Below, in pieces: positions 6,081 to 62,538 of a stretch of DNA of 64,000 nt. The position numbers and the translations under genes were made by a program. Position 1 is the first letter of the stretch; every line of letters starts with the position of its first letter. The stretch lies in NCBI GenBank assembly GCA_963924555.1, contig OZ004591.1, forward strand, positions 4,836,001-4,900,000. The letters run 5' to 3'. This stretch comes from Crambe crambe. Taxonomy: Eukaryota; Porifera; Demospongiae; Poecilosclerida; Crambeidae. The notes under the pieces were generated by a model that saw only the letters and a program-made list of their open reading frames with translations, was not told the origin of the DNA and ran no database searches.

Positions 6081-6086
6081 TATAAT

Positions 6087-6392
6087 AAGGGAAAAAGCAT
6101 TTCGTGAAATGAAAAAAAGATGTAGGGATGACCACTGCTCAAAAAAGTAAGGAAACAAGAAGGATGGAAATGGGATCAATCTTTGTTCTGTATATCCAGC
6201 CAACAATCCCTACATATACACACATTACTACACTATAATCTGAAGTTACCTGACGTATATGTAGGGATTGTTGGCTGGATATACAGAACAAAGATTGATC
6301 CCATTTCCATCCTTCTTGTTTCCTTACTTTTTTGAGCAGTGGTCATCCTTACATCTTTTTTTCATTTCACGAAATGCTTTTTCCCTTACTTG
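6087..6392. mobile_element. C-family long palindrome, copy 1
   Basis: The arms are about 140 bp each, nearly perfect, around a ~30-bp loop (about 6229-6256). The outer GTAGGGATG box is at 6122-6130 and the inner box borders the loop in opposite orientation. The right arm has one mismatch (CATCCTTAC). The first six terminal bases (ACAAGT) are missing on the left. ACTTGTTCCTGG closes it on the right, then a T-rich tract leads into the body. A 73-codon ORF read through the right arm recurs in other copies only because the repeat does. Confidence 0.9.
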
Positions 6393-7160
6393 TTCCTGGT
6401 CTTTTTTCCTCTCTTTTATGGTTTTAGCTATGATTAGAGTTCATTCTTCTATGTGTATGCAGGGACAGATGAAAGAAGTTCTCCAATAGCATACCAGCCC
6501 AATCATTTATCGAGTCAAGGTGTTGTGTTGTTGAGCCATACTTGGAGGTCGAAGATGCTGAAATAGAGTCTACCGTGGTGAATCTAAATCCCCGAATCGA
6601 TACAGTAGTCTATCATCAGCTAGAGCTAGCTAGCTAGCTAGAGACAGCTGAGTAATATTATGATTTCGAATAATTGGATATTCAAATACATGCGCATGCG
6701 TATTATAGAAAAGATGGCTTCCTAATTGAATTAGTCGAGTGCTGTGCTCCATAGTGTCTCCTTTTTCATCGACTCTTTCGAGGACCAACGAGTAGAAAAG
6801 ATCGTAGTTCGTAGAATTTGGAGTGGATTTGTCCAGAAATCATGGCTGTAGCTTGAGTGGTTCGAGAGATATGGTTGTCTAAGAAGAATAATAAGAAGAA
6901 GAATAATAATAATAATAATAGAGAAGAAGAAGAATATAGCGATTTACCTGCTTGCCGTATTTCTGAAACGGTAAGCTCCCTGGTCCTGAAACTTGGTCTG
7001 CACATTGTAGTAGGCTCTAGTAGGCTGGATAATCATTCACAGTAGCTTTTGTTAGGTCTAAGTGGGGGAACTGGAATTTCACTTTTGTATTAGTCTATAG
7101 GCGGCGCGCGCGGCCGTCCGAGTCATCCCTACATAGAGAGTGCTACCGCACTCTCTGATA
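6393..7160. mobile_element. C-element body plus type I 3' hairpin module
   Basis: The body follows the palindrome and contains an AGCTAGCT microsatellite, GCGCATGCG 30 bp before AAGATGGC, and an AAG/AAT tract (about 6885-6920). It then holds a GC-rich end GGCGGCGCGCGCGGCCG, the box CATCCCTAC at 7124-7132 and a hairpin (stem 7135-7143/7148-7156, loop TACC) followed by GATA. Together with 6087-6392 it makes a ~1.07-kb element with unlike ends. No ORF is convincing. Confidence 0.75.
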
Positions 7161-10268: not shown

Positions 10269-11055
10269 ACGCGTGCGTGGGCCCCATTTCACTGGGGGAG
10301 CCCCAAAATACTAGCGCTTTGAGGCCCCCCTGGGGGCCCCATTTCACTAGTGATATACGGCCGGGGGGCCCCATATCACGGGGGGCCCCATATCGCTCCT
10401 ACACCGGTCACATATATACAAATATTTATTATGTAGTTACTGAGCATGTCCCATAGAGAATAGTAGTATCACAACTAGGGTGATATTTTACCATATCGCG
10501 TAGTCATATCGCGTAGTCATATTACGTCCCCCTGGGCAATCTTTGCATAATGATTTATTTTACATGTATAGCCATGATAATATATATATAAGTGAAAAAC
10601 TAGACTATACTTCCTTTTCAAGAGTTTAAAAAATAATGCTGAACTCCTAGCAAAAAAAATCCAGTAGCTAATTATACTATGGCAATGTGCAACATTTGAC
10701 AACAAGTAGTAAAAACATTTGACAGCAAGTGAAGCAAGTACAGCTATACCTTTTAGATGTGCCTAAACTCCTTAACTAGCTGCTGTAGTAAGTGGCAGTT
10801 CAGCCTGGCAGCGCGGTTGGTAAAGGGTCTGGCCCACGAGACTAGCTGCATACAGAGGAAGCTGTAATGCTAGCCACAAAGCACTTAGCGCTTACAATAG
10901 ACACTTATAAGCCTAGTGTCCACAACTAGAAATGCTGTAGAAATCAATTACAACTGTAACAAGTCAAGCTCACTCACCGGATAAACAAAACGAATCCAAC
11001 GGCCTGAAGGCACCACGCATGCTCAGTAGTTACATAATAAATTGATTATTACGTA

Positions 11056-11157
11056 GATACCGTGAAATATCACTCGTCTGATTGGCTGGTATTCTCACTC
11101 GTGCCTGCGGCACTCGTGTGAATACTAGCCAACAGACTCGTGATATTTCACGGTATC
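11056..11157. repeat. Inner hairpin of the left palindrome arm
   Basis: GATACCGTGAAATATCAC is mirrored by GTGATATTTCACGGTATC at the other end, with imperfect pairing through CTGATTGGCTGGTATTC. The same hairpin occurs inverted at 11235-11336, so the locus is a palindrome whose arms are themselves hairpins. Confidence 0.85.
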
Positions 11158-11234
11158 AATGTAATAATCTATATATATCTCGAGCTCCCGTTGACATGAC
11201 CAGAGAGTGGCTCGCTTCGCTCGCCAATTACATT

Positions 11235-11336
11235 GATACCGTGAAATATCACGAGTCTGTTGGCTAGTATTCACACGAGTGCCGCAGGCACGAGTGAGAA
11301 TACCAGCCAATCAGACGAGTGATATTTCACGGTATC
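11235..11336. repeat. Inner hairpin of the right palindrome arm
   Basis: Mirror copy of 11056-11157. Because each arm is an imperfect hairpin and the arms mirror each other, both strands encode the same short peptide beginning MAGILTRACGTRVNTSQQTR. It is a by-product of symmetry. Confidence 0.85.
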
Positions 11337-12027
11337 TACGTAATAATCAATTTATTATGTAACTACTGAGCATGCGTGGTGCCTTCAGGCCGTTGGATTC
11401 GTTTTGTTTATTCGGTGAGTAAGCTTGACTTATTAGTTGTAATTGATTTCTACAGCGTTTCTGATTGTAGACACTAGGCTTATAAGTGTCTATTGTAAGC
11501 GCTAAGTGCTTTGTGGCTAGCATTACAGCTTCCTCTGTGTATGCAGCTAGTCTCGTGGGCCAGACCCCTTACCAACCGCGCTGCCCGGCTGAACTGTCAC
11601 TTACTACAGCAGCTAGCTAAGGAGTTCAGGCACATCAAAAAGGTATAGCTGTATTTGCTTCACTTGCTGTCAAATGTTTTTACTTGCTTTAGCTACTTGT
11701 TGTCAAATGTTGCACATTAATTATTCCCTAGGAGTTCAGCAGAATTTTTAGCTATTCTTTAAACTCTTGAAAAGGAAGTATAGCCTAGCTTTTCACTTAT
11801 ATATTATCATGGCTATAAAATAAATCAATATGCAAAGATTGCCCAGGGGGACGTAATATGACTACGCGATATGACTACGCGATATGGTAAAATATCACCC
11901 TAGTTGTGATACTACTATTCTCTATGGGACATGCTCAGTAACTACATAATAAATATAAATATATATATATAAATATATATCTCGAGCTCCCGTTGACATG
12001 ACCAGAGAGAGGCTCGCTTCGCTCGCC

Positions 12028-15701: not shown

Positions 15702-15703
<2 letters not shown>

Positions 15704-15959
15704 AAGTAAGTGCAAAAAATTTCTTCTAAATAAAAAGGTTAAGTAGAGATAGCTTAAAATCTAGCTGGGCTATATAATGTACTGCAGTCGTATGAAAACA
15801 ATCCCTACATTTACATCCAATATACCTATAGCTAGCTATGGCAGTTGTAAAAGTAGGGATTGTTTTCATACGACTGCAGTACATTATATAGCCCAGCTAG
15901 ATTTTAAGCTATCTCTACTTAACCTTTTTATTTAGAAGAAATTTTTTGCACTTACTTGT
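15702..15959. mobile_element. B-family palindrome, copy 2 (complete)
   Basis: Both termini are present: ACAAGTAAGTGCAAAAAATT at 15702 and its complement ending 15959. The outer box is altered to GTAGAGAT in the left arm (15743) and to the complementary ATCTCTAC in the right arm. Inserted at the end of an (ATT)n tract. Confidence 0.9.
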
Positions 15960-16306
15960 TTCTATCCTTTTTTCTTAGTGCTTGAAGTTTAATAATAAGT
16001 TTGTGTATGTGGCAGTATTTACTGTCACTTCAACTGAGAGTATATGCATGCAGTGATTATTAATTTGACATGAGTATCTTTTTCTTTTGTAGGTAGCAGT
16101 CTCTAGTTGAAGAATTTGTTTAGCTATTTAAGTTTTGTCTATTATTTAATATAAAACTTTACAACAACAGCAATGTAGCTAAATGACATGTGAGCTGACT
16201 ACACTACAGCCAAGTACTGGCTATAATACTACTATAAGATGAGCATCTGTACTGTAATTCAGCAAGGAGTGACTGGAACATAATCAGATAAGACGATTAA
16301 GCTAGA
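15960..16306. repeat. B-element body, copy 2
   Basis: Matches 12976-13589 without the 210-bp MITE and with small deletions. It begins with the same T-rich tract after ACTTGT. Confidence 0.7.
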
Positions 16307-16517
16307 AGCTTACGTGGCTCCGCCCATAAGCCCCGCCCCCTACCGACGTGCGCTTCAAAATGGCGTCGAAAGATTAGCTAGTGTTCCGAGTGCTCGAATA
16401 GTGAAGTAGAGCCTTAGTCAAAACTAATAGCAAAAGATCAGCCTCTAGGTGCCGCTCTAACAGATGGCCAAAGCAGAATTTTGATGACTATAGCCAGTAA
16501 GTCGGTACGTCGATCTG

Positions 16518-16547
<30 letters not shown>
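16307..16547. repeat. (ATT)n-tailed repeat, copy 2
   Basis: Nearly identical to 15442-15701, including AAAATGGCGTCG. The tail is an ATT tract at 16516-16547, into which a C palindrome is inserted. Confidence 0.7.
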
Positions 16548-16549
<2 letters not shown>

Positions 16550-16860
16550 AAGTAAGGGAAAAAGCATTTCGTGAAATGAAAAAAAGATGTAGGGATGACC
16601 ACTGCACAAAAAAGTAAGGAAACAAGAAGGATGGAAATGGGATCAATCTTTGTTCTGTATATCCAGCCAACAATCCCTACATATACACACATTACTACAC
16701 TATAATCTGAAGTTACCTGACGTATATGTAGGGATTGTTGGCTGGATATACAGAACAAAGATTGATCCCATTTCCATCCTTCTTGTTTCCTTACTTTTTT
16801 GAGCAGTGGTCATCCCTACATCTTTTTTTCATTTCACGAAATGCTTTTTCCCTTACTTGT
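16548..16860. mobile_element. C-family palindrome, copy 2 (complete ends)
   Basis: ACAAGTAAGGG at 16548 pairs with CCCTTACTTGT ending 16860. The outer box is 41 nt from the left end (16589). The arms differ at one informative site: CTGCACAAAA on the left against the complement of CTGCTCAAAA on the right. This copy is therefore heterozygous between the states fixed in both arms of copies 1 and 3. Confidence 0.9.
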
Positions 16861-17356
16861 TCCTGGTCTTTTTTCCTCTCTTTTATGGTTTTAGCTATGA
16901 TTAGAGTTCATTCTTCTATGTGTATGCAGGGACAGATGAAAGAAGTTCTCCAATAGCATACCAGCCCAATCATTTATCAAGTCAAGGTGTTGTGTTGTTG
17001 AGCCATACTTGGAGGTCGAAGATGCTGAAATAGAGTCTACCGTGGTGAATCTAAATCCCCGAATCGATACAGTAGTCTATCATCAGCTAGAGCTAGCTAG
17101 CTAGCTAGCTAGAGACAGCTGAGTAATATTATGATTTCGAATAATTGGATATTCAAATACATGCGCATGCGTATTATAGAAAAGATGGCTTCCTAATTGA
17201 ATTAGTCGAGTGCTGTACTCCATAGTGTCTCCTTTTTCATCGACTCTTTCGAGGATCAACGAGTAGAAAAGATCGTAGTTGGTAGAATTTGGAGTGGATT
17301 TGTCCAGAAATCATGGCTGTAGCTTGAGTGGTTCGAGAGATATGGTTGTCTAAGAA

Positions 17357-17391
<35 letters not shown>
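16861..17391. repeat. C-element body with (AAT)n end
   Basis: Same body as 6393 onward. It ends in an AAT microsatellite (17356-17391) that directly receives the next palindrome, so the 3' hairpin module is absent. Confidence 0.8.
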
Positions 17392-17395
<4 letters not shown>

Positions 17396-17682
17396 GTAAG
17401 GGAAAAAGCATTTCGTGAAATGAAAAAAGATGTAGGGATGACCACTGCACAAAAAAGTAAGGAAACAAGAAGGATGGAATCTTTGTTCTGTATATCCAGC
17501 CAACAATCCCTACATATACGTCGGGTAGCTTCAGATTATAGTGTAGTAATGTACGTACATGTAGGGATTGTTGGCTGGATATACAGAACAAAGATTCCAT
17601 CCTTCTTGTTTCCTTACTTTTTTGTGCAGTGGTCATCCCTACATCTTTTTTCATTTCACGAAATGCTTTTTCCCTTACTTGT
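17392..17682. mobile_element. C-family palindrome, copy 3 (short-arm, inverted loop)
   Basis: Both arms lack AATGGGATC, both have six instead of seven A/T in the run next to the box, and both carry CTGCAC. The loop (about 17519-17555) is the reverse complement of the loop in copies 1, 2 and 5, although the right flank is the same. Confidence 0.9.
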
Positions 17683-18017
17683 TCCTGGTCTTTTTTTCCT
17701 CTCTTTTATGGTTTTAGCTATGTATAGAGTTCATTCTTAAGGAAACAAGAAGGATGGAATCTTTGTTCTGTATATCCAGCCAACAATCCCTACATATACG
17801 TCGGGTAGCTTCAGATTATAGTGTAGTAATGTACGTACATGTAGGGATTGTTGGCTGGATATACAGAACAAAGATTCCATCCTTCTTGTTTCCTTACTTT
17901 TTTGTGCAGTGGTCATCCCTACATCTTTTTTCATTTCACGAAATGCTTTTTCCCTTACTTGTTCCTGGTCTTTTTTTCCTCTCTTTTATGGTTTTAGCTA
18001 TGTATAGAGTTCATTCT
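17458..18017. repeat. Perfect 280-bp tandem duplication
   Basis: 17458-17737 and 17738-18017 are identical as far as I compared them. The join occurs at TAA. It duplicates most of palindrome copy 3 and the start of the body, leaving a second palindrome (17738-17962) without its outer left arm. It is either very recent or an assembly effect of the palindrome. Confidence 0.85.
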
Positions 18018-18741
18018 TCTATGTGTATGCAGGGACAGATGAAAGAAGAATAGTTCTCCAATAGCATACCAGCCCAATCACTATCAACGAGTCAAGGTGG
18101 AGGTAGAAGATGCTGAAATAGAGTCTACCTTGTTGAATCTAAATCCCCGAGTCTATACAGTAGTCTATCATCATCATCACTAGCACTATTCTAGCTACCT
18201 ATACCTAGCTAGCTAGCTAGAGGCAGCTGAATAATATTATAATTTCGAATAATTGGATATCAAATACATGCGCATGCGTATTATAGAAAAGATGGCTTCC
18301 TAATTGAATTAGTCGAGTGCTGTGCTCCTTAGTGTCTCCTTTTTCATCGACTCTTTCGAGGATCAACGAGTAGAAAAGATCGTAGTTCGTAGAATTTGGA
18401 GTGGATTTGTCCAGAAATCATAGCTGTAGCTTGAGTGGTTCGAGAGATATGGTTGTCTAAGAAGAATAATAATAAGAAGAAGAATAATAATAATAATAAT
18501 AGAGAAGAAGAAGAATATAGCGGTTTACCTGCTTGCCGTATTTCTGAAACGGTAAGCTCCCTGGTCCTGAAACTTGGTCTGCACATTGTAGTAGGCTCTA
18601 GTAGGCTGGATAATCATTCACAGTAGCTTTTGTTAGGTCTAAGTGGGGGAACTGGAATTTCACTTTTGTATTAGTCTATAGGCGGCGCGCGCGGCCGTCC
18701 GAGTCATCCCTACATAGAGAGTGCTACCGCACTCTCTGATA
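17963..18741. mobile_element. C-element body plus type I hairpin module
   Basis: Downstream of the duplicated palindrome. The body has an extra TCATCATCATCAC run. The AAG/AAT tract (18466-18515) leads into the type I module ending with a hairpin at 18716-18737 and GATA. Confidence 0.75.
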
Positions 18742-19208
18742 GAGAAGAAGAAGAATATAGCGATTTACCTGCTTGCCGTATTTCTGAAACGGTAAGCTCC
18801 CTGGTCCTGAAACTTGGTCTGCACATTGTAGTAGGCTCTAGTAGGCTGGATAATCATTCACAGTAGCTTTTGTTAGGTCTAAGTGGGAGAACTAGAATTT
18901 CACTTTAGTATTAGTCTATAGGCGGCGCGCGCGGCCGTCCGAGTCATCCCTACATAGAGAGTGCTACCGCACTCTCTGATAAAGAAAAAGAACAAAAGTC
19001 AATTTTAGAACTCGCTTTTTTCTTATGTTAGCGAATGAATTTTTGGTTTTTGAACATTCTCCTCTCTTCTTTATAGATGTAATAATTCACTGTAGCCTTC
19101 TGAGAACCTATAGAGTAAGGATAGAAGAGAAAGAAGAGTTTTAGTTTATACAGTCTTATGACCTTTGACCCGCCATCCCTACTTAGAGAGTGCTAACGCA
19201 CTCTCGAT
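18742..19208. repeat. Head-to-tail 3' hairpin modules, type I then type II
   Basis: 18742-18981 is a second type I module 240 bp long, ending in a hairpin at 18956-18977. 18982-19208 is type II: unrelated sequence (ACAAAAGTCAATTTTAGA...GACCTTTGACCCGC), but the same CATCCCTAC box and AGAGAGTGC hairpin (19185-19205). So the terminus is shared while the body differs. Confidence 0.8.
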
Positions 19209-19515
19209 AAGGGAAAAAGCATTTCGTGAAATGAAAAAAAGATGTAGGGATGACCACTGCTCAAAAAAGTAAGGAAATAAGAAGGATGGAAATGGGATCA
19301 ATCTTTGTTCTGTATATCCAGCCAACAATCCCTACATATACACACATTACTACACTATAATCTGAAGTTACCTGACGTATATGTAGGGATTGTTGGCTGG
19401 ATATACAGAACAAAGATTGATCCCATTTCCATCCTTCTTGTTTCCTTACTTTTTTGAGCAGTGGTCATCCCTACATCTTTTTTTCATTTCACGAAATGCT
19501 TTTTCCCTTACTTGT
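19209..19515. mobile_element. C-family palindrome, copy 5
   Basis: Long-arm form (with AATGGGATC in both arms), loop as in copy 1, one arm mismatch (AAGGAAATAAG on the left). It directly follows the type II hairpin. The left terminal ACAAGT is missing, as at 6087. Confidence 0.9.
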
Positions 19516-20303
19516 TCCTGGTCTTTTTTCCTCTCTTTCATGGTTTTAGCTATGATTAGAGTTCATTCTTCTATGTGTATGCAGGGACAGATGAAAGAAG
19601 TTCTCCAATAGTTCTCCAATACCAGCCCAATCATTATCGAGTCAAGGTGTTGTGTTATTGAGCCATACTTGGAGGTCGAAGATGCTGAAATAGAGTCTAC
19701 CGTGGTGAATCTAAATCCCCGAATCGATACAGTAGTCTATCATCAGCTAGAGCTAGCTAGCTAGCTAGCTAGCTAGCTAGAGACAGCTGAGTAATATTAT
19801 GATTTCGAATAATTGGATATTCAAATACATGCGCATGCGTATTATAGAAAAGATGGCTTCCTAATTGAATTAGTCGAGTGCTGTGCTCCTTAGTGTCTCC
19901 TTTTTCATCGACTCTTTCGAGGATCAATGAGTAGAAAAGATCGTAGTTCGTAGAATTTGGAGTGGATTTGTCCAGAAATCATAGCTGTAGCTTGAGTGGT
20001 TCGAGAGATATGGTTGTCTAAGAAGAATAATAAGAATAATAATAATAATAATAATAGAGAAGAAGAAGAATATAGCGATTTACCTGCTTGCCGTATTTCT
20101 GAAACGGTAAGCTCCCTGGTCCTGAAACTTGGTCTGCACATTGTAGTAGGCTCTAGTAGGCTGGATAATCATTCACAGTAGCTTTTGTTAGGTCTAAGTG
20201 GGGGAACTGGAATTTCACTTTAGTATTAGTCTATAGGCGGCGCGCGCGGCCGTCCGAGTCATCCCTACACGTGCACATAGAGAGTGCTACCGCACTCTCT
20301 GAT
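19516..20303. mobile_element. C-element body plus type I hairpin module
   Basis: The body has the longest AGCTAGCT run in the window and the GCGCATGCG/AAGATGGC pair. The module ends with a hairpin at 20279-20300. CACGTGCA is inserted just before the hairpin compared with other copies. Confidence 0.75.
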
Positions 20304-21100
20304 AATAATAATAGAGAAGAAGAATTATAGCGATTTACCTGCTTGCCGTATTTCTGAAACGGTAAGCTCCCTGGTCCTGAAACTTGGTCTGCACATTGTA
20401 GTAGGCTCTAGTAGGCTGGATAATCATTCACAGTAGCTTTTGTTAGGTCTAAGTGGGAGAACTAGAATTTCACTTTAGTATTAGTCTATAGGCGGCGCGC
20501 GCGGCCGTCCGAGTCATCCCTACATAGAGAGTGCTACCGCACTCTCTGATAAAGAAAAAGAACAAAAGTCAATTTTAGACATCGTTTTTTTCTATGTTAG
20601 CGAATGAATTTTTGGTTTTGGAATATTCTCCTCTCTTCTTTGTAGATGTAATAATTCACTCTAGACTTCTGAGAACCTGTAGAGTAAGGGTAGAAGAGAA
20701 AGAAGAGTTTTTAGTTTATACTGTCTTATGACCTTTGACCCGCCATCCCTACTTAGAGAGTGCTAACGCACTCTCTGATATATATTTTTTACAATTTCAA
20801 TGAGTCATGACCTGAGAGTCACCTCACTCGCTTCGCTCGCTCGCTGCAATAATAATAATAGAGAAGAAGAAGAATATAGCGATTTACCTGCTTGCCGTAT
20901 TTCTGAAACGGTAAGCTCCCTGGTCCTGAAACTTGGTCTGCACATTGTAGTAGGCTCTAGTAGGCTGGATAATCATTCACAGTAGTTTTTGTTAGGTCTA
21001 AGTGGGGGAACTGGAATTTCACTTTTGTATTAGTCTATAGGCGGCGCGCGCGGCCGTCCGAGTCATCCCTACATAGAGAGTGCTACCGCACTCTCTGATG
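20304..21100. repeat. Array of hairpin modules I, II and I
   Basis: Type I ends at a hairpin 20527-20548. Type II ends at a hairpin 20755-20776. A 70-bp piece carrying CGCTTCGCTCGCTCGC (20781-20848) intervenes. Another type I module ends at a hairpin 21075-21096. Each module is followed by GAT(A/G) and starts again in an AAT/GAAG tract. Confidence 0.75.
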
Positions 21101-22300: not shown

Positions 22301-22960
22301 ACAAGTAAAGGAAAAAACATTTAAAAAAATGAAAGTAGATGTAGGGATGACAAAAAACTGTACAAAAAAATAAAGAAACAAGGAAAGAAATTGTGAAAAG
22401 AAAATGTGGATTTATTATCATCCCTACATCAAGCCTATCAATGGTATAGCAATGGACTATCTACCAGAATAGAGAGAGGCTGTCCTCTTTCAATAATGAA
22501 AATCTATTAGCAGTCACTCTTTTGGCACAGGTGGTTGAGAATTGTCTTTTCAGTGAGGTTGAATCAATATGTGAATAGAGAGAGGCTGTCCTCTTTCAAT
22601 AATGAAAATCTATTAGCAGTCACTCTTTTGGCACAGGTGGTTGAGAATTGTCTTTTCAGTGAGGTTGAATCAATATGTGAGCTATGAATACCACCTAGCT
22701 AGCATCACATATATATTTTTAATTGTTTCATTATGGTAATTATTGAACATCTTATGATAGCTACTTATAAGCTTAGCTGAATAGTCAAAGTATAATTATA
22801 ATATTTAGCTACGATAATTCCTTGGCTTGATGTAGGGATGATAATAAATCAACATTTTCTTTTCACAATTTCTTTCCTTGTTTCTTTATTTTTTTGTACA
22901 CTGTTTTTTGTCATCCCTACATCTACTTTCATTTTTAAAAATGTTTTTTCCTTTACTTGT
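22301..22960. mobile_element. D-family palindrome with long loop
   Basis: ACAAGTAAAGG at 22301 pairs with CCTTTACTTGT ending 22960. The arms are ~134 bp; the outer box GTAGGGATG is 40 nt from the end (22341) and the inner box borders the loop. The 390-bp loop holds a tandem duplication. A T-rich tract follows on the right, as in families B, C and E. It marks the left end of the 22301-25568 insertion. Confidence 0.88.
22467..22678. repeat. Identical 106-bp tandem duplication in the D loop
   Basis: 22467-22572 and 22573-22678 are identical. The unit starts GAATAGAGAGAGGCTGTCC. Confidence 0.85.
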
Positions 22961-23261
22961 TTTCTTTCTTTTTTTGTAATTAATGAGCTCCCCTGCCTAT
23001 ATACGCCCTTGGTATGAAATCAAAAGATGGGATAGATACATATTTTTTATAGAGAACTACTTGCTCGTCTCCAGGTTTGTGGAGGTGGTCAATAGAGCAC
23101 TCTTTGCACGTGCGCCAAAAATCCGATTAGGTGGATTTGTACTCTACTCTCAGTAATCTTCCATGACACATGATGCAATACTGCTAAATCAGCACTGCGG
23201 TAGACAGCTATGTGTCTTTTATATCCTATCTCAGCTGGGATAACCCCACCTACTGAACAAG
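22961..23261. other. D-element body, unassigned
   Basis: After the T-rich tract there is ~280 bp found once in the window. A 70-codon minus-strand ORF (23089-23301) crosses into the next repeat and has no recognisable features. Confidence 0.5.
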
Positions 23262-25478
23262 GGTATGTCACACTAGTGACTGCACCCAGATTTGACTTCA
23301 TCCTTGCATAATCTCATCTATTCAGCTCTTGTTCCAACTCTTTTTTGATCAGTTAACTAGTTATCCTTACATCACCTTAGAATAAATATTTTTGTTTCTT
23401 TTATTTTTTTTAAATAGAATTATTTTTGCAGGAGGTTATTAGAGCTGTATCAATGAATATCTCATTGATTTTGTGATATCTTTTTGTAGGAAGTAGTTAG
23501 CACTTAGCTATAACTGTTTTTAATATTAATTCTATGTTATGCTGATTAATTAAGTTGAACTTCATAGAGTGGTAGGGGAAGGAGGCAAGGTCTGTAGCTG
23601 TTCTTGTTTCATGAAATTTAATTTCATAGCTCTTGTGTTACAATGCTGGATCACAACCAAGCTTGGTAAGCGATTAAAATCTTCTAACTAGCTGAGTTCA
23701 TAGATAAAAGAAGGAGAAGGGCTAGGGGCTAGGGAGCTGCGATCAGCCTGCTTTCGTTTCTAAATAATGCACTGGCAGCTTATGAACTCGAGAAAGCTTA
23801 CCATTCAAAATTTACACGCTGTCGTTACAGCTCAGCTAATAGCTAGCTAGGATAACTTACCCTAGAGCTGACTATCTATCTATGCTCGAAATGCGAAATG
23901 GCTTTTTGCTTCGATGAGATCGAGAGTCATGGCAACTATCGTTTGTTACGCATGCGCGTTATGTTCAATTTCTTTGTTGTATAGTCCCTATACTAAGAGA
24001 GCGGCTTTTTTTCTGAGTGAACTAGAGGCTAAACCGATACCACACTGCACTGGTCGGGGTAAAAAGCTACACATTCATATATAGAACATAGCCATAACGC
24101 GGCCCAATTTTTCTCCAGATCGTGCCATTATTATTATGATGATTAAGAACAAGAAAATGAGAAATCATGAAAAAGTGCATTTTTACTGCTCTTCCGTGTT
24201 AAGTCTTTCAGCCTCCAAAATTCTCCTGCATGATAAGAATTGCATGAAATACAGGGTAAGCAGTCATAGCAGCTACAACTTAAGAAAATCCAACTTCATT
24301 TTGTATAAAGAAAAAAACATTTATTCTAATAAATGAAGGTGATGTAGGGATGACTAGTTAACTGGTCAAAAAAGAGTTGGAACAAGAGCTGAATAGATGA
24401 CTGCAAGGATGAAGTCGAATGTGGGTACGTCACACTAGTGACTGCACCTGGATTCGACTTCATCCTTGCAGTCATCTATTCAGCTCTTGTTCCAACTCTT
24501 TTTTGACCAGTTAACTAGTCATCCCTACATCACCTTCATTTATTAGAATAAATGTTTTTTTCTTTAGCTACTTGTTTCTTTTATTTTTTTAAAAAATAGA
24601 ATTCTTTTTGCAGGAGGTCATTAGAGCATCTATTATGAATACCTCATTATAGCTGCTTGTTATGATTATTGTTCAGTAGGAAGTAGTTAGTGTTTTTTTT
24701 CCTCCTTATTATAACTGTTTTTAATATTAATTGTTATGCTGGTTCATAGAGTGGTAGGTGAAGGAGGCAAGGTAACTGTAGCTGTTCTTGTTTCATGAAA
24801 TTCAATTTTCATAGCTCTTGTATTGCAATCCTGGATCACAACCAAGCCTGAATTAAAATCTTCTAACTAGCTGAGCTCATAGATAAAAGAAGGGAGAAGG
24901 GCTAGGGCTAGGGCAGGCTAGGGAGCCTGCTTTCGTTTCTAAATAATGCACAACTCACTGGCAGATTATGAGCTCGAGTAAGCTTAGGTCTACCATTCAA
25001 AATTTACACGCTGTCCTTACAGTTCTAGCTAGTAATAGCTAGCTTAGAGCTGACTATATTATTCTGCTCTATCTCTATGGTTGAAATGGCTTTTTGCTTC
25101 GAGAGTTATGGCAACTATACTATCGTTTGTTACGCATGCGCGTTATGTTCAATTTCTTTGGTTGTATAGTCCCTGTACTAAGAGAGCGGCTTTTTTTCTG
25201 AGTGAACTAGAGGCTAAACCGATGCCACACTGCACTAGTCGGGGTAAAATGCTACACATTCATATATAGAACATAGCCATAACGCGGCCCAATTTTTCTC
25301 CACATCGTGCCATTATTATGAAGAATATGATGATTAAGAACATGAAGAATAAGAAATCATGAATATGCACGCTTTTATTGCTCTTCCGTGTTGAGGGTTT
25401 CAGTCTCCAAAATTCTCCTGCATGATAAGAATGTGCATAAAATACAGGGTAAGCAGTCATAGCAGCTACAACTTACTA
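23262..25478. repeat. Tandem duplication of the ~1.1-kb E unit
   Basis: Copy 1 (about 23262-24290) starts inside the right half of an E palindrome; copy 2 is about 24423-25478. Shared landmarks are the CACACTAGTGACTGCACC loop, CAGGAGGT(C/T)ATTAGAGC, CTTGTTTCATGAAATT, TACGCATGCGCGTTATG and AAATACAGGGTAAGCAGTCA. Each has an NRF1-like site near the middle. No gene is supported; both 60-codon ORFs are frame fragments. Confidence 0.75.
24303..24557. mobile_element. E-family palindrome
   Basis: Arms of ~115 bp around a ~30-bp loop (24426-24455). The left end is GTATAAAGAAAAAAAC (diverged from ACAAGTAAAG). The outer GTAGGGATG is at 24344 and its mirror at 24520. There is no inner box beside the loop, unlike families A-D. 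With the downstream unit it forms a complete element ending at the 25544 hairpin. Confidence 0.85.
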
Positions 25479-25568
25479 TTTTCTGAGTAAATCCAACTGC
25501 ATTTAGTATTAGTCCTATATAGGGTCATAGGTCATCCCTACATAGAGAGCGCTACCGCGCTCTCTGAT
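25479..25568. repeat. 3' hairpin terminus with type III body
   Basis: CATCCCTAC (25533-25541) precedes a hairpin at 25544-25565 with stem AGAGAGCGC/GCGCTCTCT and loop TACC, then GAT. Both stem strands carry a C/G change relative to AGAGAGTGC, so pairing is kept. The paralogous sites at 38640 and 62785 lack everything between 22301 and here. Confidence 0.8.
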
Positions 25569-25969
25569 TAATGATTGTTACATGGTCATATCTTGCATCC
25601 GTCATCTTATATCCTACATGCATCTATTTCAGTCTTATCATGCTACCTATGAAACAAACTTTAAACTCTGTTTACAATGATGGCTATAACACTGAAAGTA
25701 AATCCAATTACAATATCAACTTACAGTCATGCAGTGTATGTATCAGAGAGTACGATAGTACTCTCTAAGTAGGGATGGCACGGATGCTCCATTGGAGTAT
25801 AGTACTTAATATTTTCTTTCATAACACCAGAATACTTCCCTCCTACAGTCAGCAGCTCCTAACTTGAACACAGAACACCTTCAATGTCTATAGGACTCAA
25901 ATATGAAGAGCAGAAGACAACGCAGTATCATTTTACAGCAACTTCTAAAATCGCCATTTTCATCTGGTC

Positions 25970-38605: not shown

Positions 38606-39400
38606 ATTCAATTCAGGTAAGTTTATTACATTGCTTAATCTTGATCTCATTAATGATTGTGGTCATAATGTTGTCATATCTTGCATCCGTCATCTTATAT
38701 CCTACATGCATCTATTTCAGTCTTATCGTGCTACCTATGAAACAAACTTTAAACTCTGTTTACAATGATGTTATAACACTGAAAGTAAATCCAATTACAA
38801 TATCAACTTACAGTCAGTGTACGTATATCAGAGAGTACAATAGTACTCTCTAAGTAGGGATGGCACGGATGCTCCATTGGAGTAGTACTTAATATTTTCT
38901 TTCATAACACCAGAATACTTCCCTCCTACAGTCAGCAACTCCTAACTTGAAGACAGAACACCTTCAATGTGCTAGGACTCAAGTATGAAGAGCAGAGGAC
39001 AAAAAGGGTAGCTAGCTATACAGTAGGGATGAAGGGGGTCAATATTTGTTCTGTATATCCAGACAATAATCCTTACATAATATTATTATGCATACATTAC
39101 TGCACTATAATCTGGAGCTACCCATAGCTTACTATTATACCTACTTCACTCCCTCCATGAGGCCAGAGAGAAGTAGGGAATTAAGTTGGGTGATATAGAA
39201 GGGCTATAGGAGTGATAGGAGAATAGTGTAATAAAGCAGCTAAATTCTATGGCTATCGATCCCTACTTCAACTTTTTATTTAGTCATTTCAAGTCAAATT
39301 TATCCATGCAGTTATGCTTTATTGTTGATATACATCCATCTTAGATATAGTCTACATGTTATTATGTGAATGGTTGTTAGTTGATATAACAATATGATTT
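38606..39400. repeat. Transporter-linked spacer with hairpin end and decayed palindrome
   Basis: 38650-38995 matches 25569-25920 including the reverse-oriented hairpin (38830-38851) and GTAGGGATG (38854-38862). 39000-39290 matches the decayed palindrome upstream of gene 1 almost base for base. Confidence 0.65.
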
Positions 39401-62230: not shown

Positions 62231-62538
62231 AATAAGTGAAAGGAAAAAAATATATGTTAAATAAAAAGGCCATGTAGGATTAGCCTGTACTTTAACAGTT
62301 TCTGTCAACAAAAATCAAAATAATGCTGCCTTCAATAATAATCCCTACATCACTGCCTAAACCAAGCAGAACACTTTATACTGACATGAACAATTAAAGC
62401 AGCTTGGTGGGAGGCAGTGATGTAGGGATTATTATTGAAGGCAGCATTATTTTGATTTTTGTTGACAGAAACTGTTAAAGTACAGGCTAACCCTACATGG
62501 CCTTTTTATTTAGCATAAATTTTTTTCCTTTCACTTGT
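62231..62538. mobile_element. A-family palindrome
   Basis: Arms of ~130 bp around a ~70-bp loop. The left end ATAAGTGAAAGG (62232) pairs with CCTTTCACTTGT. The outer box GTAGGATT (62274) pairs with AACCCTAC (one mismatch); the inner boxes AATCCCTAC and GTAGGGATT border the loop. The T-rich tract seen right of the other families is missing; a transporter fragment follows directly. Confidence 0.88.

What the first reader, a model, noticed from the sequence alone, without database searches (positions are those of the whole stretch)
22301..25568. A mobile-element class with unlike ends: long palindrome on the left, boxed short hairpin on the right
Paralogous spacers at 38640 and 62785 read GCTTAATCTTGATCTCATTA straight through. 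Here the same site is split, and the insert starts exactly with ACAAGTAAAGG of a palindrome and ends with CATCCCTAC plus an AGAGAGCGC hairpin and GAT. The same order (palindrome, T-rich tract, non-coding body, box + hairpin + GATA) recurs at 6087-7160, 17738-18741 and 19209-20303 with other palindromes and bodies. The ends share only the GTAGGGATG box, in opposite orientation. Ordinary MITEs have matching ends. Helitrons have unlike ends, but the CTRR 3' end is not seen. About 7 bp of target (GATCTCA region) appear lost.
Basis: partly seen in the sequence, partly recalled or inferred. Interest (0 to 1): 0.8.

Follow-up and report, generated by a model that had tools for sequence, protein, structure and literature searches.

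The report
Helitron relatives with giant palindromic ends
The odd insert is a stripped-down Helitron-like jumping gene whose protein-coding relatives sit elsewhere in the same genome; its unusual part is a long self-complementary end whose two halves appear to be kept matching each other.

Summary
The architecture is real, but it is not a new class. Window 22301-25566 is a non-autonomous Helitron-like element. In the same 143-Mb eukaryotic genome, E5 has this insert's type of ends around a 2,314-aa frame; close relatives encode HUH Rep, PIF1 helicase and OTU domains. Box + hairpin + GAT occurs 2,185 times; the reversed-pattern control gives 0. Six of six filled/empty comparisons (one host paralogue, five nested copies) fit insertion at a host A|T step without duplication or loss. 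One end reads CTGA|T (fits CTRR); along the Rep gene the ends read A|TC...CTTG|T. Hairpin-end stacks examined in the window, E5 and E9 are nested insertions.

It resembles Helitron2 but fails one of its rules, and fails Helentron rules. What looks new: one end is a palindrome with 90-164-nt arms that share element-specific changes; the inner arm keeps the exact terminus (22 of 22) while the outer often lost it (10 of 22 kept). I infer rolling-circle transposition with arm-to-arm correction in folded single strands.

The parts
22301..25566 (-). non-autonomous Helitron-like element of the C-type (strand given as that of the Rep gene in its longer relatives)
   Evidence: hairpin side aligns to E4/E5/E10 at 82-84%, palindrome side at 84-90%; empty site L051
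22301..22960 (.). terminal palindrome (P-end): outer arm 22301-22435, inner arm 22824-22960, boxes at 22341, 22419, 22832, 22912
22961..22977 (.). T-rich tract after the inner arm
   Evidence: sequence
22978..24305 (.). first non-coding body copy
24306..24566 (.). second, internal palindrome (arms 115 nt, 100% complementary); start of a second element copy
24567..25532 (.). second non-coding body copy
25533..25541 (+). box CATCCCTAC, inverted copy of the box in the palindrome
25544..25565 (.). 9-bp hairpin of the H-end; element ends CTCTCTG(A) and host reads (A)T onward
6087..7158 (-). A-type non-autonomous copy (palindrome 6086-6388; box and hairpin end from 7124); its outer arm lacks ACAAGT
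15702..19207 (-). B-type copy interrupted by the A copy below (outermost of three nested elements)
16548..18978 (-). A-type copy inserted in the (ATT)n tract of the B copy
17391..18738 (-). A'-type copy inserted in the (AAT)n tract of the A copy
19209..20778 (-). composite with one palindrome and three successive hairpin ends (20302, 20549, 20778)
20846..21098 (-). solo A-type hairpin-end tail without palindrome
25742..25777 (-). another hairpin end, stem AGAGAGTAC/GTACTCTCT
38827..38862 (-). paralogous hairpin end of the same kind

Best explanation
The insert is a non-autonomous member of a family of Helitron-like rolling-circle transposons living in this genome. Longer members encode a protein with an HUH Rep nuclease (two catalytic tyrosines), a PIF1-type helicase and an OTU protease domain. 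Shown: both ends of the insert match both ends of such elements; insertion is at a host A|T step without duplication or loss in the six sites tested; the two ends share a 13-nt box in inverted orientation; one end (H) is a box plus a short hairpin and is precise, the other (P) is a long palindrome whose outer terminus varies; the two palindrome arms change together. Inferred: the Rep protein nicks one strand at A|T, the element is peeled off and copied as a single strand, and it is joined to another A|T. I favour (about 60:40) initiation at the hairpin end (A|TCAG..., upstream of the Rep gene) and termination at the palindrome (...CTTG|T), because the variable end in Helraiser transposition is the 3' end. 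Also inferred: in the single-stranded intermediate the palindrome folds back, so mismatches between arms are corrected or one arm templates the other, keeping them alike within an element while elements diverge.
For: 67 Helitron_like_N (PF14214) matches in the genome, 16 of them in open frames of at least 2,300 aa; 0 of 14 control genomes. Of 10 fetched Rep regions, E4, E5 and E10 carry the C-type palindrome and E5 and E10 also the C-type hairpin end of this insert; E8 carries A-type and E9 B-type ends. PF14214 + PIF1 + OTU in the E4, E8 and E9 proteins, no endonuclease domain (E5 and E6 not scanned, E5 is 97% identical to E4 in DNA). HUH motif and, in the alignment, Y-x3-Y shared with Helraiser. 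2,185 hairpin ends. Six of six filled/empty pairs match exactly over 24-48 nt across the join with the A|T boundary, 0 of 6 with the boundary after GAT. H-end precise: 1,752 of 1,872 exact TGC-type hairpins are followed by TGAT. P-end variable: outer ACAAGT 10 of 22, inner 22 of 22. Arms: cells with the same non-majority state in both arms against cells with arms differing: A 10/13, B 12/0, C 13/6; 0 of 5,000 shuffles reach the observed count in each family.
Against: The direction of transposition is not proved: the Helitron2 rule (3' box immediately before the hairpin, 20-30 bp from the end) and the CTRR rule (CTGA|T) point the other way, with the Rep gene reversed, for which there are published precedents. 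The arm shuffles ignore relatedness. In the A family more cells show arms differing than agreeing, many in the decayed E1 copy. With looser core limits the own partner arm is nearest or tied for only 8 of 14 arms in A, 2 of 10 in B and 4 of 8 in C. E4 lacks a recognisable hairpin end in the fetched stretch; E10 has both ends but its Rep frame is interrupted; no ends were assigned to E3 or E7. E2, with an RGSPH-type Rep, also lies between a B-type hairpin end and a B-type palindrome; whether it belongs to that element or is inserted in it I did not resolve. Five of six empty-site tests lie in AAT/ATT repeats, where repeat length cannot be checked. No activity is demonstrated.
Confidence: 0.85

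Rival explanations
1. Helitron2-type orientation: the palindrome is the 5' end where the nick starts and the hairpin end is the 3' terminator; the Rep gene lies in reverse orientation.
For: 3' box directly before a hairpin, box 25-34 bp from the end, CTGA|T fits CTRR; [quoted passage not shown] the 22301 insert has two palindromes and one hairpin end, as expected if copying stops at the first hairpin.
Against: The palindrome terminus is the imprecise one while the hairpin end is precise; three composites have one palindrome and several hairpin ends (window 19209-20778, E8, and E1 with a decayed second one), which in this direction needs read-through; the box is about 40 bp from the palindrome end, not 0-2.
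Confidence: 0.35
2. The palindromes are separate MITE-like or fold-back elements that happen to sit next to a hairpin-ended element.
For: Each arm of types A, B and C carries inverted boxes; palindrome types differ between lineages.
Against: Palindrome within 3 kb only on the box side for 25 and only beyond the hairpin for 0 of 56 hairpin ends (1 of 56 when single boxes and 5 kb are allowed); Rep-bearing elements of three lineages end in palindromes; no target duplication in the six sites tested; roughly one A/C-type palindrome per A/C-type hairpin end (2,319 arm boxes, 1,113 hairpin ends, exact matches).
Confidence: 0.04
3. The arms match because each palindrome arose recently and separately by inverted duplication, not because the arms are corrected continually.
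For: Shared private indels (E8 insertion, E9@11167 deletion, window 17432 deletion) would look the same if one arm had been copied anew.
Against: The inner arm ends at the mirrored terminus in all three families, and the sequence between the arms is alike within each family, so re-creation would have to hit the same end points many times. This differs from correction only in frequency.
Confidence: 0.3
4. The tandem hairpin ends arise by tail-only insertions, not nesting.
For: Solo tails exist (window 20846-21098), and stacks with one palindrome exist (window 19209-20778, E8, E1).
Against: In window 15702-19207, E5 and E9 each extra hairpin end is matched by its own palindrome in mirror order, and the joined flanks recreate an uninterrupted body.
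Confidence: 0.15

Closest known systems
Helitron2 (Bao and Jurka 2013, PMC3627910; passages read)
   Same: Short asymmetric inverted repeats, hairpins at both ends, box immediately before the short hairpin, Rep-helicase without endonuclease, reversed RepHel known, no duplication in nearly all Helitron-1N1_CRe copies
   Different: Box about 40 bp from the palindrome terminus instead of 0-2; palindrome arms of 90-164 nt instead of a short hairpin; A|T target instead of after TTTT; OTU domain present
Helentron / HINE / DINE-1 (Thomas et al. 2014, PMC4067079; passages read)
   Same: Non-autonomous derivatives of Rep-helicase partners; subterminal inverted repeats plus a terminal stem-loop; OTU domain occurs in Helentrons
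   Different: No AP endonuclease domain; RGAPH instead of RGSPH at the HUH motif; A|T instead of TT target
Fusarium FoHeli (PMC5148889; passages read)
   Same: Inverted repeats at the ends; FoHeli1/2 have hairpins at both ends and start with TCAG, as the hairpin end does when read towards the Rep gene; self-insertion composites proposed
   Different: Short hairpins; FoHeli1/2 end in ATTTT
Canonical Helitron / Helraiser (PMC4778049; passages read)
   Same: HUH-Y2 Rep plus PIF1-type helicase, A|T insertion, TC at one end; CTTG-3' ends occur in some insertions from Helraiser vectors lacking the hairpin or right end; variable 3' end
   Different: Helraiser groups with E1, not with this family; one short palindrome, 11 nt from the 3' end

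Membership tests
Helitron superfamily | HUH Rep fused to PIF1-like helicase in longer partners | tested here: met
Helitron superfamily | insertion without target duplication | tested here: met
   6 of 6 filled/empty pairs
Canonical Helitron (Helitron1) | insertion between A and T | tested here: met
   one-base ambiguity, W|AT or A|T
Canonical Helitron (Helitron1) | 5'-TC and CTRR-3' together | tested here: inconclusive
   TC...CTTG in the Rep direction, CAAG...CTGA in the other
Canonical Helitron (Helitron1) | no 5' hairpin, single 3' hairpin about 10-12 nt inside | tested here: not met
   structures at both ends
Canonical Helitron (Helitron1) | Rep groups with Helraiser | tested here: not met
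   UFBoot 100 split {Helraiser, E1} against the rest, (9 sequences, unrooted)
Helitron2 | 8-15-nt asymmetric inverted repeats at the two ends | tested here: met
   13 nt in A and C types; matched variants in E9
Helitron2 | hairpins at both ends; 3' repeat immediately before the 3' hairpin, 20-30 bp from the end | tested here: met
   (in the palindrome-first orientation)
Helitron2 | 5' repeat 0-2 bp from the 5' end | tested here: not met
   box 40 bp from the end at 22301, 35-45 bp in the A and C copies aligned
Helitron2 | RepHel falls in the Helitron2 clade | not testable with these tools
   no Helitron2 reference protein available; only the split from Helraiser/E1 was tested
Helentron / HINE | AP endonuclease domain | tested here: not met
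   Pfam scans of E4, E8, E9 at E <= 0.001
Helentron / HINE | S between G and P in the HUH motif (RGSPH) | tested here: not met
   RGAPH in E4, E5, E6, E8, E9; RGSPH in E2, E7
Helentron / HINE | insertion in TT | tested here: not met
MITE / DDE transposon | matching terminal inverted repeats and target duplication | tested here: not met
   ends share only the subterminal box; no duplication

The most novel reading that the evidence does not exclude
The giant palindrome is an end-repair device: the inner arm is an archived copy of the element's terminus, and in the single-stranded transposition intermediate the often truncated outer end folds back on the inner arm and is re-copied from it, restoring the terminus and keeping the arms identical, much as hairpin telomeres do for linear DNA genomes. 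This would be a self-correcting rolling-circle transposon end.
Probability: 0.2. Interest if true: 0.78.

Novelty: new variant of a known kind. Interest (0 to 1): 0.5.

Why it matters
How Helitron-like elements recognise and finish their second end is an open question. This genome holds thousands of exact end copies (2,185 hairpin ends) in at least three lineages, 16 Rep-helicase frames of at least 2,300 aa still open, clean empty sites, and a natural record of arm-to-arm sequence transfer in terminal palindromes. It also shows that such elements can be taken for a new class when the last host AT is counted as part of the element.

Tried and rejected
Loss of the second catalytic tyrosine in the A/C lineage was considered from the motif YVTKA and rejected: in the alignment Y-VTA-Y-VTK lines up with Helraiser Y-LFK-Y, so both tyrosines are present.

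The boundary 'ends in GAT' was my first reading and was rejected by the joined-flank test (0 of 6). The idea that hairpin-tail arrays are tail-only insertions was largely replaced by nesting. Using composites to prove the direction failed: each composite type can arise in either direction. A first genome pattern with the parts in the wrong order found nothing.

An automatic choice of palindrome core included loop and truncated flank columns and gave mixed nearest-neighbour results: the own partner was nearest or tied for 8 of 14 arms in A, 2 of 10 in B and 4 of 8 in C. I redid the count on fixed core limits; both are reported.

The organism was not identified. A sponge was my guess from memory and rests on no call. 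Paper searches for nested or palindromic Helitron2, long palindromes in Helitrons, sponge or Amphimedon Helitrons, Amphimedon transposable elements and Helitron2/Helentron papers from 2019 on listed nothing that, by title and start of abstract, describes this structure. The listings were capped (8 of 9, 12 of 26, 12 of 1,170, 10 of 218 and 4 of 4 papers), and only open-licence papers are held.
Full report
WHAT WAS CLAIMED.

THE OBSERVATION. The parts are there. The palindrome 22301-22960 has arms of about 136 nt, 96% complementary, and folds far better than 20 shuffles. The box CATCCCTAC at 25533 is followed by a 9-bp stem and 4-nt loop. Among 19 distinct hairpin-like 22-mers that I picked by eye from the first 100 genome places (palindrome arms and other lengths left out, so the sample leans towards paired ones), stem pair 7 occurs as T-A, C-G, A-T and T-G and pair 8 as G-C, A-T and G-T; 16 and 18 of 19 pair. 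The pattern box + hairpin + GAT occurs 1,068 + 1,117 times in the 143-Mb genome, and 0 times when the pattern is reversed. The palindrome box GATGTAGGGATGAC occurs 2,319 times; of the first 100 places 78 are in facing pairs less than 800 bp apart, with 3 back-to-back pairs. Of the 56 exact A/C-type hairpin ends on C1 below 5.68 Mb (of 84 listed for C1), 25 have a palindrome within 3 kb only on the box side, 0 only beyond the hairpin, 2 on both sides and 29 none; with single boxes counted and 5 kb allowed, 37, 1, 3 and 15. The patterns are exact-match only, so 'none' includes decayed copies.

WHAT IT IS. The genome has 67 Helitron_like_N matches, 16 in open frames of at least 2,300 aa. I fetched ten Rep regions of 18 kb each, E1-E10. 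E5 and E10 carry, on the side upstream of the Rep gene, the hairpin end TCATAGGTCATCCCTACATAGAGAGCGC...GAT found at 25533 and, downstream, the same palindrome type; E5 has a 2,314-aa frame between them, while the frame of E10 is interrupted. E4 has a 2,397-aa frame and the palindrome but no recognisable hairpin end in the stretch. The insert aligns to these at 82-84% on the hairpin side and 84-90% on the palindrome side. E8 (2,461 aa) carries A-type ends (as window 6087-7158) and E9 (2,383 aa) B-type ends (as window 15702 on). The E4, E8 and E9 proteins contain PF14214, PIF1, OTU and DUF6570 and no endonuclease domain. The HUH motif is RGAPHFH/RGAPHYH in E4, E5, E6, E8 and E9, against RGSPHVH in E2 and E7 and RGLPHCH in E1, a close relative of Helraiser. 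A 9-sequence Rep tree splits {Helraiser, E1} from the rest with UFBoot 100 (my slicing shortened E7 and E8). The insert is therefore a non-autonomous derivative of a Helitron-like element, in the relation that HINEs bear to Helentrons. One loose end: the RGSPH-type Rep of E2 also lies between a B-type hairpin end and a B-type palindrome; I did not resolve whether it belongs to that element.

BOUNDARIES AND TARGET. I compared one host paralogue (L051) and five nested insertions with uninterrupted copies. If the element is ACAAG...CTCTCTG, the joined flanks match an empty site exactly over 24-48 nt across the join in 6 of 6; if it ends in GAT, in 0 of 6. Five of the six sites are AAT or ATT repeats, whose length cannot be checked. 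All 25 hairpin ends that my regular expression found in the window and E1-E10 are followed by GAT; it missed one at 20260-20303, whose box and hairpin are farther apart and which also reads GAT.

NESTING. Window 15702-19207 is a B copy split by an A copy (16548-18978), itself split by another (17391-18738), each time in the AAT/ATT tract 230-240 bp from the hairpin end; E5 shows B > A > C and E9 B > B'. This explains the stacked hairpin ends there. Other stacks have one palindrome and several hairpin ends (window 19209-20778, E8, and E1 with a decayed second end), and the target insert has two palindromes and one hairpin end; these look like composites moved as one unit, but the set is small and fits either direction.

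THE TWO ENDS DIFFER IN PRECISION. 1,752 of 1,872 exact TGC-type hairpins are followed by TGAT. At the palindrome, 929 of 1,404 A-type arms keep ACAAGT. Of 38 two-armed palindromes among the first 100 of those 1,404 places, 22 could be oriented by a hairpin end (4 ambiguous, 12 unknown, not counted): the inner arm keeps ACAAGT in 22 of 22, the outer in 10 of 22. The hairpin list used there was the 84 C1 places plus nine picked by eye. In the held copies, 6 of 7 shortened ends start at an A after T.

THE ARMS CHANGE TOGETHER. Sixteen palindromes in three families were aligned arm by arm. Within fixed core limits, cells where both arms carry the same non-majority state, against cells where arms differ: A 10 and 13, B 12 and 0, C 13 and 6; shuffling partners reached the observed count in 0 of 5,000 in each family. 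Shared changes include a 10-bp insertion in E8, a 10-bp deletion at 17432 and a large deletion in E9@11167. Relatedness is not controlled, but states private to one element and present in both arms need copying between arms. A first version with looser limits gave a weaker picture (own partner nearest or tied for 8 of 14, 2 of 10 and 4 of 8 arms).

HOW IT LIKELY WORKS. Shown: architecture, partner protein, target, precision difference, concerted arms. Inferred: rolling-circle transposition. Direction is open. Read along the Rep gene the element is A|TCAG-hairpin-box ... box-palindrome-CTTG|T: TC start, precise start, variable finish, and a CTTG finish seen in some insertions from Helraiser vectors lacking the hairpin or right end (PMC4778049, passages). 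Read the other way it is A|CAAG ... box-hairpin-CTGA|T, which fits CTRR and the Helitron2 3' end (PMC3627910, passages) with a reversed Rep gene. I lean to the first, about 60:40. A 90- to 164-nt fold-back in a single-stranded intermediate offers a ready route for mismatch correction or templated extension between arms.

NOVELTY. Unlike ends with a shared box and terminal hairpins are known from Helitron2, Helentrons and FoHeli (passages of PMC3627910, PMC4067079, PMC5148889). The long, concertedly evolving terminal palindrome with an intact mirrored terminus was not described in what I saw; the searches were made, with capped listings, in an open-licence library. Because one Helitron2 rule is not met and clade membership could not be tested, I call it a new variant within the Helitron superfamily, not a member of a named subgroup.

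Noticed in passing
window 10412-11966: A different set of nested long inverted repeats (arms 209, 151 and 150 nt, 95-99% complementary) in which one search lists no box; possibly another palindromic element.
   Followed up: no
window 62234-62536: A further palindrome (arms 125 nt, 98%) carrying AATCCCTACATCACTGCC boxes; a similar box is in E3.
   Followed up: no
window 22467-22680: A unit of about 106 bp is tandemly duplicated inside the loop of the target palindrome (seen).
   Followed up: no
G000:C14:4757127-4912913: The host sequence around the insert is a paralogous array, eight related sites over about 156 kb.
   Followed up: partly
L031 3947-7140: A Helraiser-like canonical Helitron Rep and helicase in separate open frames, next to an A-type copy, in the same genome.
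   Followed up: partly
L047 (E9), nested elements: Two nested elements have boxes matched between their own two ends (ATGTAGGGATGGC with CCATCCCTACAT; AAGTAGGGAT with ATCCCTACTT), suggesting the boxes at the two ends change together.
   Followed up: partly
L033 51-10000 and L034 to about 1590 (E2): A Rep of the RGSPHVH type with an OTU domain in a second frame lies between a B-type hairpin end and a B-type palindrome; it may be another partner of these ends or an insertion into a B copy.
   Followed up: no
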